Source: Myxococcota bacterium
Lineage (GTDB): Bacteria; Myxococcota_A; UBA9160; PR03
Assembly: GCA_030066475.1 (NCBI GenBank)
Contig: JASJBO010000325.1
Span: 1 to 8,257 of the forward strand
DNA length: 8,257 nt
Reading direction: 5' to 3'
Part shown: positions 36-8,257 of the stretch, piece by piece
How the letters are laid out: each line of letters starts with the position of its first letter
How positions within the stretch are numbered: position 1 is the first letter of the stretch
Made by a program: the position numbers and the translations under genes
The notes under the pieces: generated by a model
What the model was told of the DNA's origin: nothing
The model's input: the letters and a program-made list of their open reading frames with translations, nothing else
Database searches by the model: none

Positions 36-94
36 CTTGGTGGACTCCGCTCGCCTGCGGCTCGCTGCGCGCTCCGGCTTCGCCTCCGCTTGCG
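36..94 (+). repeat. Dispersed repeat copy A, diverged
   Basis: Plus-strand copy beginning CTTGGTGGACTCCGCTCG. Its mini-hairpin is GCC-TGC-GGC (53-61), followed by CTCGCTGCGCGC as in the other copies. A second mini-hairpin, GGC-TTC-GCC (76-84), replaces the long GC stem, and the unit ends CCGCTTGCGG. It is the most divergent copy and is inverted relative to B and C. Confidence 0.7.
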
Positions 95-193
95 GCTTCC
101 CCCTGCGATCTAGGTAGAGATGACTACGGGAGCTTCGGGCGGGAGGCCGTCACGCCGGCCTGCCAGCCCCGAGCGAAGCCGCGACGGCTGCCC

Positions 194-280
194 GCGCAAG
201 CGCCGCCCACCGGAGCCCGAGCAGCGCTCACTGCCCCACGCGGCGCGCGCAGCGAGCCGAAGGCGAGCGAAGTCGATAAG
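194..280 (-). repeat. Dispersed repeat copy B
   Basis: Minus-strand copy beginning CTTATCGACTTCGCTCG and ending GCGGCGCTTGCGC. The left module (about 30 nt) matches copies D and E almost exactly. The stem arms GCGCCGC/GCGGCGC (240-246 and 200-206) are kept, but the loop between them is 33 nt instead of a few bases. It lies in the same orientation as copy C, about 40 nt further downstream of argG. Confidence 0.75.
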
Positions 281-319: not shown

Positions 320-366
320 CGCAAGCGCCGCAGGCGCGCGCAGCGAGGCGAAGCCGAGCGAAGTCC

Positions 367-371
<5 letters not shown>
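320..371 (-). repeat. Dispersed repeat copy C, at argG stop
   Basis: Minus-strand copy beginning CTTAGGGACTTCGCTCG and ending CGGCGCTTGCG. Its first mini-hairpin is GGC-TTC-GCC (347-355), where copies B, D and E have GCC-TTC-GGC: both arms are exchanged and pairing is kept. Its second hairpin is short, GCGCC-TGC-GGCGC (325-337). The TAG of argG falls within the left edge. Being structured and just past the stop, it may help end or stabilise the argG transcript. Confidence 0.8.
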
Positions 372-1551
<1,180 letters not shown>

Positions 1552-1611: not shown

Positions 1612-3186
1612 CTACTCCTTGAACTGCACCTCGTACAGCTCGTTGTCGTCGATGATCCGCTGGATCTCGTCCTCGGAGAGCGTCCCGGTCGCGTTGACCG
1701 TGATCGACTGCTCGCGGCCGGTCTCGAGGTCGCGCGCCGACACGCTCACGATGCCGTTGGTGTCGATGTCGAACGAGACCTCGACCTCCGGCTCGCCCTT
1801 GCGCGCCTCGCGGATGCCCGAGAGGATGAACTCGCCGAGCAGGTCGTTTTCCTCCGCCACGTCGCTCTCGCCCTGGAGCACGCGGATCTTCACCGCCGTC
1901 TGGTTGTCGCGCGTGGTGGTGAAGACGTGCGCCCGGCGCACCGGCAAGGTGGTGTTGCGGTCGATCAGCTTGGCGAAGTGGCCGCCGTAGGTCCCGATTC
2001 CCAGGGACAGCGGCGTCACGTCCAGGAGCAGGAGGTTCTCGTCCTCGTTGATCAGCGCCTCGCCCTGGATCGCCGCGCCGGTGGCCACGACCTCGTCGGG
2101 ATTGACGCCCTTGTGGGGGCGCTTGCCGAAGAAGTCGGCCACCGTGTTCTGCACCATCGGCATCCGGGTCTGGCCGCCGACGAGGATCACCTGGTCCACG
2201 TCCTTCGGCCCGAGTCCGGCGTCGTTCAGGCACAGCTCGACCGTCTTGATCGAGTTGTTCACGATGTCGCCGACCAGGCCCTCGAGCGTCTGGCGGGTCA
2301 TCTCCACCGACAGGTGGCGCGGACCGTTGGCGTCGCTGGCGATGAACGGCAGGTTCACTTCGGTGCTGGCGCTCACCGAGAGGTCGCACTTGGCCTTCTC
2401 CGCGGCGTCCTTCAGCCGCTGCAGCGCCATCGGCTCGGAGCGCAGGTCGATGCCTTCGGCCGCCTCGAACTGCTCGAGCAGGTGGTTCACGATGCGGCGG
2501 TCGAAGTCCTCGCCGCCCAGGAAGGTGTCTCCGGCCGTGGCCAGCACCTCGATCACGCCGTCGCTCATCTCGAGGATCGAGACGTCGAAGGTGCCGCCGC
2601 CGAGGTCGTAGATCAGCACCTTCTCGTCGTCGGGCTTGCGACCGAAGCCGTAGGCGAGTGCGGCGGCGGTCGGCTCGTTGATGATCCGCAGCACCTCGAG
2701 ACCGGCGATCTTGCCGGCGTCCTTGGTGGACTGCCGCTGGGCGTCGTTGAAGTGCGCGGGCACCGTGATCACCGCCTCGCGGATCGGCTCGCCGAGGTGC
2801 TCCTGGGCGACGCGCTTCATCTCGCGCAGGATGATCCCGGCGATCTCGGGACAGGTGAAGACCTTCTCGCCGAGCTGGATGCGCGGGTCCTCGTTGGGGC
2901 CCTCGACGATCGCGTAGGGGCACAGATCGATGGCGCGGTCGACCTCGGGGGTGCCCCAGCGGCGTCCGATCAGGCGCTTGGAGGCGTAGACCGTATTGCT
3001 CGCGTTGGTGATCGCCTGGCGCTTGGCCAGGTGGCCCACCAGCCGCTTGCCGTCCTCGGCGAGGGCGAACATCGACGGCGTGGTCTTGTAGCCCCCGGTG
3101 TTGGGGATCACGACCGGCTGGCCGTTGTCCACCACCGCCACGCACGAGTTCGTCGTGCCGAGGTCGATACCGATCACGCGATTCAT
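1612..3186 (-). CDS. Short Hsp70 (DnaK family) lacking the lid
   Basis: ATP-dependent Hsp70 chaperone of 524 residues, against about 610-640 for housekeeping DnaK. The ATPase domain (1-383) is complete: [10 protein letters not shown] (5-14), [11 protein letters not shown] (170-180), [11 protein letters not shown] (193-203) with conserved T199, and [10 protein letters not shown] (334-343). The interdomain linker LLLLDV (385-390) and the beta substrate-binding domain (about 391-500) follow. The protein stops at LYEVQFKE, just past the first lid helix ([12 protein letters not shown]), so most of the helical lid and the C-terminal tail are absent. Only 60 nt remain before argG and hold no lid remnant, so this looks genuine rather than a frameshift. 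The ATG at 3184-3186 is chosen over 3204 because it sits 5 nt after GGGAGGG, overlaps the J-protein stop as ATGA, and gives the family-typical N-terminus. A specialised paralogue rather than the main DnaK is likely, so I give no symbol. Confidence 0.94.
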
Positions 3187-4637
3187 CGCTTCCCTCCCAG
3201 CCATCGGGCTGCAGCGAGGCGGCCGCCCATCGAGCGGAGCTCGTCACGGGCCTCCTGATCCTCGGGATCCAGCTTGACGGCGGTCTCGAGCTCGCGACGC
3301 GCGTTGGCGTCGAGCCCGGCCGCCTTGTAGACCTGTCCCAGCAGCCGCCGGTAGGGGCCGGAGTCGGGCACGAGCTCCACCGCCTCCGCGGCCCACTCCT
3401 TGGCCAGGTGCAGGTCCTGATCCGTCATCCAGGCCAGCCGAGCCGCCCGGAACAGCAGGTCGGCGTCGTGGGGGCGGTAGTGGACCGCCTCCTCGAACGC
3501 GCGGAACGCCGCGGGATAGTCGCGCAGCTCGAGCGCGTTCTCGGCCTCCTTCACCAGCTGGCGGGCGCGCTCGTCGTGGGCGCGGCGCTGCACGTCGGCG
3601 AAGTTCTCCTTGTAGATCTCGTTCCAGGGATCGAACGCGATCGCCAGGCGGACGCTGCCCGCGGCCTCGATCCAGCGCTCGTCGGCGAAGGCGGCCATGC
3701 CGGCCTCGAACATCCGCTTGGCCTTGCCGCGGCGTTCGCGCAGCACCCGGCCGTGGAGCGAGAAGCCGTGACGGCGACGGGCGCGACGCAGGGCACCGGG
3801 CGCCGGCGCCTCGGTCGGCTCGGCCTCGGGCTCGGGCTCGGCCTCGGCCTCGGCGGCCGTCGTCTCCTCGGGCGCCGGAGGCGCGGACGCGGGCGCCGCG
3901 GCGGGCGGCGGCGGCGCTCCCCCGGCGTGGGCGGCGGCGGCCAGCGAGCGCTCGATCTCGGCGCGCGCCATCGGATCGGACAGCAGCTCGTAGGCCTCGA
4001 CGATCTTCTTGTAGATCCGGTTGAGGCGCTCCTCGTAGGGCCCGATCTCGCGGCGGAAGTAGCGGTCGGGGTGGAAGCGCTTCGAGAGCTTGAAGTAGGC
4101 GCGCTTGAGCGCCTTGCGGTCGGCGTCGGCAGGCACGCCCAGGATCTCGGGATAAGTGCCCTGGAGCCGCGGCTCGAACTCGAGGATGCCGCGCTGCGCC
4201 TCGATCGAGAGATCGAGCGATTCGAGCAGCAGGGACTCGTCGATCTGGTGGACTTCGCTCGCCTTCGGCTCGCTGCGCGCGCCGCCGGAGGAACCGGCGG
4301 CGCTTGCGCCGGCGGCCTCGTTCGCGTTGGCCGAGTTAGTAGGCGGGCGGGAGGTGGCGTCGACCGGGGGCGGGGAATCCTTCTGGTCGCCGGCGGGCTG
4401 GATCGAGCCGTTCGAGAGCACGAGGACGCCGTCCTTCAGCCACTGCTCGAGGCAGCGGTCGACCTCTTCCGCCGGCAGGCCGCCGATCTCGCGCAGCAGG
4501 GCGCAGGAGGTGCGTCCGTCGATGCGCGACAGCAGGTAGCCCTCTGCCGGCGAGAGCGGCAGCTGGGCAGCATCGATCTCGGGTGCCAGGTTCGGCACCT
4601 GCTCCTCCAAGGCGACCTTTGTGCCGCGTCGATGCAT
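3183..4637 (-). CDS. J-domain protein with TPR repeats
   Basis: Probable co-chaperone of 484 residues for the Hsp70 encoded immediately downstream. Residues about 20-75 (LSPAEGYLLSRIDG then EEVDRCLEQWLKDGVLVL) look like a small winged-helix-type domain that I recall from deltaproteobacterial J/TPR proteins. A linker follows (about 80-135). The J domain spans about 160-232 and has an intact HPD motif (189-191), the signature for stimulating Hsp70 ATPase. A Pro/Ala/Glu-rich stretch (236-280) leads to three or four TPR-like helical pairs (about 304-470), presumably for binding a client or partner. There is no zinc-finger or Gly/Phe region as in housekeeping DnaJ. Residues 110-130 are encoded by a copy of the dispersed repeat. 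The ATG at 4637 has only a weak GGGG upstream at 3-nt spacing; GTG at codon 14, after GGAGGAG, is an alternative. The TGA stop overlaps the Hsp70 start. Confidence 0.9.
   Translation of the reverse strand: MHRRGTKVALEEQVPNLAPEIDAAQLPLSPAEGYLLSRIDGRTSCALLREIGGLPAEEVDRCLEQWLKDGVLVLSNGSIQPAGDQKDSPPPVDATSRPPTNSANANEAAGASAAGSSGGARSEPKASEVHQIDESLLLESLDLSIEAQRGILEFEPRLQGTYPEILGVPADADRKALKRAYFKLSKRFHPDRYFRREIGPYEERLNRIYKKIVEAYELLSDPMARAEIERSLAAAAHAGGAPPPPAAAPASAPPAPEETTAAEAEAEPEPEAEPTEAPAPGALRRARRRHGFSLHGRVLRERRGKAKRMFEAGMAAFADERWIEAAGSVRLAIAFDPWNEIYKENFADVQRRAHDERARQLVKEAENALELRDYPAAFRAFEEAVHYRPHDADLLFRAARLAWMTDQDLHLAKEWAAEAVELVPDSGPYRRLLGQVYKAAGLDANARRELETAVKLDPEDQEARDELRSMGGRLAAARWLGGKR
3192..3198 (-). 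promoter_or_regulatory. RBS deciding the Hsp70 start
   Basis: GGGAGGG, 5 nt upstream of the ATG at 3186 and lying inside the last codons of the J-protein gene. It favours MNRVIGID as the N-terminus over the upstream in-frame ATG at 3204. Together with the ATGA overlap it supports translational coupling, which would keep co-chaperone and chaperone in fixed ratio. Confidence 0.8.
3818..3856 (-). repeat. Hexamer-like tract, acidic linker
   Basis: Consecutive six-base units of the forms GGCTCG and GGCCTC (plus-strand reading) encode the Glu/Ala/Pro run EAEAEPEPEAEP in the linker between the J domain and the TPR region. It is probably slippage-prone and length-variable between strains. It is low-complexity and has no evident catalytic role. 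Confidence 0.6.
4245..4310 (+). repeat. Dispersed repeat copy D, inside J-protein gene
   Basis: Bases 4248-4309 are identical over 62 nt to 8195-8256. The unit starts GTGGACTTCGCTCG, contains a mini-hairpin GCC-TTC-GGC (4261-4269) and a 10-bp stem GCGCCGCCGG/CCGGCGGCGC with an AGGAA loop, and ends GCGCTTGCGC. It lies inside the J-protein coding region on the opposite strand and adds about 63 bases (21 codons) in frame, encoding residues 110-130 (Ala/Ser/Gly-rich then ARSEPKASEVH). The unit has no stop codon in any of its six frames. Confidence 0.9.
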
Positions 4638-8190: not shown

Positions 8191-8257
8191 CTTTGTGGAC
8201 TTCGCTCGCCTTCGGCTCGCTGCGCGCGCCGCCGGAGGAACCGGCGGCGCTTGCGCG
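8191..8257 (+). repeat. Dispersed repeat copy E, cut by window end
   Basis: Bases 8195-8256 are identical to 4248-4309 in copy D, including both hairpins. It lies about 45 nt upstream of the response-regulator start, on the opposite strand, so it sits in that gene's leader or promoter region. The last visible base, and possibly the repeat's right edge, is at the window end. Confidence 0.9.

What the first reader, a model, noticed from the sequence alone, without database searches (positions are those of the whole stretch)
4245..4310. Repeat inserted in frame inside a co-chaperone gene
Copy D adds 63 bases, a multiple of three, in the linker before the J domain. It keeps the frame and encodes about 21 flexible residues (110-130). 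The same 62-bp DNA is intergenic at the window end, so the protein segment is derived from a mobile repeat. This recalls the palindromic elements of Rickettsia that insert within genes, but the sequence here is different.
Basis: partly seen in the sequence, partly recalled or inferred. Interest (0 to 1): 0.75.

Follow-up and report, generated by a model that had tools for sequence, protein, structure and literature searches.

The report
Mobile DNA hairpin inside a protein gene
A short repeated DNA hairpin sits inside a bacterial chaperone-helper gene without breaking its reading frame, and in related bacteria the same hairpin family sits in other genes too, facing the same way as the gene.

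Summary
In detail: 62 identical bases at 4248-4309 and 8195-8256; in the J gene they encode residues 110-130 in frame. They belong to a repeat family found mainly in one Myxococcota order (exact core in 29 of 377 phylum genomes). Anatomy: C(A/T)AG tag, a hairpin whose sequence differs between copies, then a constant core that folds into a second hairpin with compensatory changes. The J insert lies in a disordered linker. In seven related genomes plus the window, 15 of 105 classifiable sites (13 independent) lie in frame inside genes, all in sense, 12 in one reading frame, ARSEPxASEV. Aligned orthologues lack the insert for ClpA (12 of 12), CoaBC (11 of 11) and a molybdopterin enzyme (5 of 7). 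Of the other sites with a coding upstream flank 45 are sense, 7 antisense. In a second sample of 11 genomes 0 of 61 sites is in frame inside a gene, so coding invasion is lineage-limited. It works like Rickettsia palindromic elements but is not shown to be one. Its mover is unknown. No close J orthologue was found, so the J insertion itself is inferred.

The parts
4248..4309 (-). Copy D: element inserted in frame in the J gene (residues 110-130)
4303..4306 (-). CAAG tag of copy D (its last base, G, is the first base of the hairpin arm)
   Evidence: CAAG 55, CTAG 11 of 79 hairpins
4279..4303 (-). Hairpin 1 of copy D: 10-bp perfect stem, TTCCT loop; sequence variable in the family
4253..4278 (-). 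Constant 26-nt core of copy D, containing hairpin 2 (GC-GA-GCC-GNA-GGC-GA-GC)
3183..4637 (-). J-domain/TPR co-chaperone gene carrying copy D
1612..3204 (-). Hsp70 gene immediately downstream of the J gene (overlapping)
8195..8256 (-). Copy E: identical 62 bp including the variable stem, upstream of the RR-GAF gene
40..101 (-). Copy A: diverged member (73% to D without gaps), about 270 bp downstream of argG, same strand as argG
247..272 (+). Core of copy B, antisense to argG
338..363 (+). Core of copy C (compensated GGC-GAA-GCC variant), antisense to argG; the bases just after it overlap the argG stop codon

Best explanation
Copy D is one copy of a non-autonomous mobile double-hairpin element: C(A/T)AG, a hairpin of variable sequence, the constant core GCGCAGCGAGCCGNAGGCGAGCGAAG, and a TCCATCAGG-like tail. 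SHOWN: the unit is dispersed in related genomes; D and E share the variable stem as well as the core; the core fold shows compensatory changes; in related genomes the unit sits in frame, in sense, inside conserved genes, and for those examined the orthologues lack it. INFERRED: it inserted into the J gene, and is tolerated because the sense frame is usually stop-free, the peptide is short and hydrophilic (GASAAGSSGGARSEPKASEVH) and falls in a disordered linker. INFERRED: the unit is copied as a folded single strand by an unidentified enzyme, in a way that ties its orientation to that of the gene in front of it.
For: 62/62 identity of D and E including the variable stem. Core at up to 2 mismatches in 18 of 30 genomes reached through J homologues and in 6 of 6 near ones, reversed-pattern control 0. 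15 of 105 classifiable sites in frame inside genes, 15/15 sense, 12/15 frame ARSEPxASEV; all 14 non-window proteins match Pfam families. Openness of frames does not explain this: over 122 sites antisense frames are open in 58, 83 and 85%, sense frames in 74-80%. Insert-free orthologues: ClpA 12 of 12 aligned, CoaBC 11 of 11, molybdopterin enzyme 5 of 7. Hairpin 1: 79 of 183 sites score >=6 against 50 of 1934 random places; 57 distinct arms. Hairpin 2: 4 of 5 pairs show changes on both sides, which 0 of 500 shuffles reach. Upstream coding flank 60 sense, 7 antisense.
Against: No empty-site J orthologue; the linker is hypervariable, so the insertion in J and its boundaries are inferred. No target-site duplication resolved and no mobilising enzyme found. 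In a second sample of 11 genomes 0 of 61 sites was in frame inside a gene. 104 of 183 sites do not have a clear hairpin 1 by my score. Two pairs among the 15 in-gene sites are the same ancestral insertion. Copies B and C in the window face argG, against the sense rule.
Confidence: 0.87

Rival explanations
1. RNA-level element: the unit is a structured RNA module kept in sense at transcript 3' ends (as REPs are hypothesised to stabilise mRNA), and the in-gene copies are strays.
For: Without the 15 in-gene sites the upstream coding flank is 45 sense to 7 antisense while the downstream flank is 13 to 12; in 28 of 45 sites behind a sense gene the stop codon lies 46 to 8 nt before the core; two copies follow tRNA genes directly and in sense, tRNA-Tyr in L165 and tRNA-Glu in L177; conserved hairpin 2 with tandem G.A and GNA loop.
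Against: In the four genes examined orthologous sequence continues on both sides of the insert, so these copies are not at 3' ends. G-T pairs are 4 of 691 in stem 1, but the score counted G-T as a mismatch, so this is weak. No Rfam family matched the element in the six sources searched.
Confidence: 0.3
2. Selected peptide: the ARSEPxASEV frame is kept because the peptide does something useful, such as acting as a spacer or tag.
For: 12 of 15 in one frame (binomial against 1/3: 0.0003; 10 of 13 if orthologous pairs count once); one insertion is present at the same place in G008 and G035, 74% identical in that region.
Against: The host proteins are unrelated; the other sense frames may simply be worse (one reads RAASRRRAK, very basic), so purging alone could give the bias; no peptide data.
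Confidence: 0.15
3. Assembly artefact: a repeat-mediated misjoin put the repeat in the J gene.
For: The contig ends one base after copy E and begins near copy A; several copies in relatives lie at contig ends.
Against: Both sides of the insert match the same J orthologues in order and in frame; two in-gene insertions recur at the same site in two genomes.
Confidence: 0.03
4. The linker sequence is native to the J gene and copy E was copied from it.
For: D and E are identical, so the pair alone gives no direction.
Against: The family is dispersed in other genomes, the other 119 listed J homologues lack the motif, and D has all family parts.
Confidence: 0.03

Closest known systems
Rickettsia palindromic elements (RPE)
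   Same: Short palindromic repeats found between genes and fused in frame inside conserved protein genes, apparently tolerated (PMC2229807 and PMC10969869, passages read).
   Different: RPEs are described as 105-146 bp with terminal inverted repeats, in Rickettsia (PMC2229807); here roughly 45-65 bp, variable stem plus constant core, C(A/T)AG tag, GC-rich, Myxococcota MAGs, sense to the gene. RPE sequences were not compared.
REP elements with RAYT (Y1) transposases
   Same: Tetranucleotide tag at the foot of a hairpin; copies at gene 3' ends; tandem arrays (REP features partly recalled).
   Different: Tag is CAAG/CTAG, not GTAG or CGTC as in the title of PMC3733652 (listing only); Y1 matches do not track copy number; some copies lie inside coding sequence.
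Double-hairpin elements of fungal mitochondria (Allomyces)
   Same: Double hairpins suggested to be mobile (cited in PMC5910586, passages read; further details recalled).
   Different: Mitochondrial; no sequence comparison made; I recall no sense-only in-frame insertions there.
ERIC, Correia/NEMIS and similar bacterial MITEs
   Same: Some carry open frames found fused in frame to genes; a 107-bp Correia/NEMIS species is described as abundantly intragenic (PMC2229807, passages read).
   Different: These have terminal inverted repeats and target-site duplications in the table of that paper; here no end-to-end inverted repeat is seen and duplications are unresolved.

Membership tests
Rickettsia palindromic elements | In-frame copies within conserved protein genes plus copies between genes | tested here: met
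Rickettsia palindromic elements | Sequence homology to an RPE family | not tested
   no RPE sequence was fetched
Rickettsia palindromic elements | Terminal inverted repeats forming one long stem-loop | tested here: not met
   by eye on copy D and the list: tag, hairpin 1, core with hairpin 2; the ends are not complementary. No formal search.
REP/RAYT | Conserved tetranucleotide 5' of a hairpin | tested here: met
   C(A/T)AG at 66 of 79 scored hairpins, but not GTAG/CGTC
REP/RAYT | Y1 transposase (RAYT) present with the repeats | tested here: not met
   no match in G002, G003, G020 (21, 26, 81 copies), 31 matches in G015 (1 copy). Against this: G001, G007, G008, G034 have one match each and G035 two, as single-copy RAYTs would; these are incomplete MAGs.
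MITE | Target-site duplication | tested here: inconclusive
   empty sites too diverged to show one
Known structured RNA (Rfam 15) | Match of a curated family to the element | tested here: not met
   window and five loci, one weak hit (E 0.55) at L162 3202-3274, away from the element

The most novel reading that the evidence does not exclude
A new class of mobile palindrome that follows the direction of its target gene: a C(A/T)AG-tagged unit with an exchangeable stem and a constant core that inserts in sense at the 3' ends of protein and tRNA genes and, in one lineage, in frame into coding sequence, so that it works as a mobile 3'-end and peptide cassette.
Probability: 0.3. Interest if true: 0.85.

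Novelty: new variant of a known kind. Interest (0 to 1): 0.72.

Why it matters
In-frame invasion of protein genes by short palindromes is described as unusually frequent in Rickettsia (PMC10969869, passages read). Here something similar is seen in uncultured Myxococcota with assemblies of 3.5-5.5 Mb, in proteins such as ClpA, CoaBC and a DnaE-type polymerase, with insert-free orthologues, a sense-only bias inside genes and one favoured frame. That makes it possible to ask directly how new protein segments arise from mobile DNA, and what ties an insertion to gene direction.

Tried and rejected
RAYT as mobiliser: Y1_Tnp matched in 22 of 32 genomes without tracking copy number, though the near genomes G001, G007, G008, G034 and G035 have one or two each, so it is disfavoured, not excluded. 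Known RNA family: none at the element in the six sources searched. A protein-database search with the J linker region (residues 95-139) returned only the query; a match of about 20 residues cannot reach significance there, so this is uninformative. A literal search for four core strings in papers gave one unrelated hit, a P. aeruginosa mexX assay paper (listing only). Literature searches for coding palindromes in Myxococcota or Deltaproteobacteria returned no matching report (listings only; some searches were broader). Replication: a second sample from 11 further genomes of the phylum, chosen by core match and not by gene context, gave 0 of 61 in-frame sites, so I limit the coding invasion to part of the group. 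Chance openness of frames as the cause of the sense/frame bias was tested and not supported. Assembly misjoin was considered and set aside.

Limits: no RPE homology test; no dating of insertions. Site classes rest on a codon-usage score trained on 275 ORFs of the related loci, threshold 0.22, not on annotation. 24 of 129 sites and 4 of 65 were dropped for missing or N-masked flanks. Four of the 32 G035 matches were not fetched. Four more probable in-gene sites (L139, L145, L189, L224) were not added to the 15, nor were L148 and L180 (read by eye). Hairpin 1 was scored by its pairing, so its high pairing rate is partly by construction.

Full report
What was checked. The window is an 8257-base contig with no whole genome held. 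On the minus strand it carries argG, Hsp70, a J-domain/TPR protein, an ornithine carbamoyltransferase-type gene, argB and a response regulator with GAF domains. The claimed repeat is real: 62 identical bases at 4248-4309 and 8195-8256, the former in frame in the J gene. The best full-length J homologues match at 53-57% identity, so the gene is collinear on both sides of the insert. The linker holding the insert is 60 aa against a median of 32 (range 19-51) in 59 homologues and is predicted disordered.

The family. A scan with the J alignment fetched related Myxococcota and Deltaproteobacteria MAG loci. The core was found at up to two mismatches in 18 of 30 of these genomes, and in 6 of 6 with close J matches (G001, G002, G007, G008, G034, G035), never as the reversed control. 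An exact-core search of 377 genomes of the phylum hit 29; by my hand count 25 of these are among the 79 genomes of the order (set) and 4 among the other 298. Copy number varies: 34 matches in G034 and 4 in G001, whose ClpA proteins are 91% identical over the region compared.

Anatomy. Lining up copies shows C(A/T)AG, a hairpin, then GCGCAGCGAGCCGNAGGCGAGCGAAG and a TCCATCAGG-like tail. Of 183 sites with readable upstream sequence 79 have a clear hairpin 1 by my score (random places 50 of 1934), 104 do not; the 79 use 57 different arms, pair at 675 of 691 positions (partly by construction), and 66 of them carry C(A/T)AG at the foot. Some stems are shared by several copies of one genome (GCGACCGC 5 times in G002, GTCGGCCGAC 7 times in G003), as expected if the whole unit is copied. 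The core can fold as GC-GA-GCC-GNA-GGC-GA-GC: among 167 cores the two G.A positions hold in 166 and 165, and four of the five Watson-Crick pairs show changes on both sides. On 42 of the 45 distinct variants 95.7% of cells pair and 4 pairs have double changes, which 0 of 500 shuffles reach. The number of independent events is small, and cores were collected by similarity to the consensus.

In-frame copies elsewhere. I fetched all matches in G001, G002, G003, G007, G008 and G034 and all but four in G035 and scored flanks with a codon-usage model. Of 129 sites 105 had both flanks. Fifteen lie in frame inside genes: the J gene; ClpA (G034); an ABC transporter (G002); P450-ferredoxin fusions in G007 and G035 at the same place; CoaBC (G007); a molybdopterin enzyme in G008 and G035 at the same place; a CoA-transferase, an ATP-grasp/CoA-ligase protein, an Ap4A phosphorylase and an AAA regulator (G008); a DnaE-type polymerase and an AMP-binding enzyme (G035); an enoyl-CoA hydratase (G003) (Pfam). 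That is 13 independent insertions. All 15 are in sense; judged by the first core of each site 12 use the frame ARSEPxASEV, 3 use AQRAxGERS, none the third (binomial 6e-5 for orientation, 3e-4 for frame, on 15 sites). Four hosts carry two cores: the Ap4A phosphorylase, the AAA regulator and the enoyl-CoA hydratase as close tandem copies in one frame, the ABC transporter as two copies 131 bp apart in two frames.

Insert-free orthologues. ClpA: 12 of 12 aligned orthologues lack the segment, among them G001 (the G023 locus was not aligned). CoaBC: 11 of 11 aligned lack it (G003 and G020 not aligned). Molybdopterin enzyme: of 7 loci aligned G008 and G035 have it, G001, G007 and three others lack it. 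DnaE-type polymerase: of 4 loci aligned G035 has it, G008 and G020 lack it, G001 has a different longer segment there. In the molybdopterin pair hairpin 1 differs at one pair on both sides and has lost another pair (sequences, read by eye).

Orientation. The flank upstream of the element is coding in sense at 60 and antisense at 7 sites; without the in-gene sites 45 and 7; the downstream flank shows no bias, 13 and 12. Of 45 sites behind a sense gene 28 have its stop codon 46 to 8 nt before the core and 17 read into the element, 4 of these for hundreds of bases; this set was chosen for having a coding flank, so distant stops are under-represented. Two copies follow tRNA genes directly and in sense. 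So orientation appears tied to the gene in front, also where no protein is made. Openness of frames does not explain it. Copies B and C of the window are exceptions.

Against the reading. In 11 further genomes (nine of the order, two outside it) 0 of 61 classifiable sites is in frame inside a gene and 38 have no coding flank; where the upstream flank is coding it is 12 sense to 2 antisense by my count. In-gene 15 of 105 versus 0 of 61: Fisher p about 0.001. So invasion of coding sequence is limited to part of the group; kinship with the window rests on the J protein alone, and G003, with one in-gene site, is not among the closest. The mover is unknown; Y1 transposases do not follow the copies.

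Verdict. The finding is real and larger than stated. It works like the protein-coding palindromic elements of Rickettsia (PMC2229807 and PMC10969869, passages read; the 2000 and 2002 RPE papers were not read, the 2002 one is not held), but the anatomy differs and homology was not tested, so I do not file it as an RPE.

Noticed in passing
L171:1787-4000 and L226:489-2090: A cytochrome P450 and a ferredoxin are in one reading frame with the element at their junction in two genomes (G007, G035); the element may have fused two neighbouring genes.
   Followed up: partly
L138, L149, L150, L152 (G034): Tandem arrays of about four elements spaced roughly 53-68 bp, two of them at contig ends.
   Followed up: partly
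L165 core at 1951 (+), L177 core at 2017 (-): Copies lie directly after tRNA-Tyr (ends 1914) and tRNA-Glu (2062-2137, minus), in sense to the tRNA.
   Followed up: yes
window 338-372: Copy C faces argG and the bases after its core overlap the argG stop codon, an exception to the sense rule.
   Followed up: partly
L349-L357 (G009, G005): A subfamily with the same core but other surroundings (for example GGGCTCGGCCGCCT after the core), mostly without coding flanks.
   Followed up: partly
G015: 31 Y1 transposase matches in a genome with one core match.
   Followed up: no
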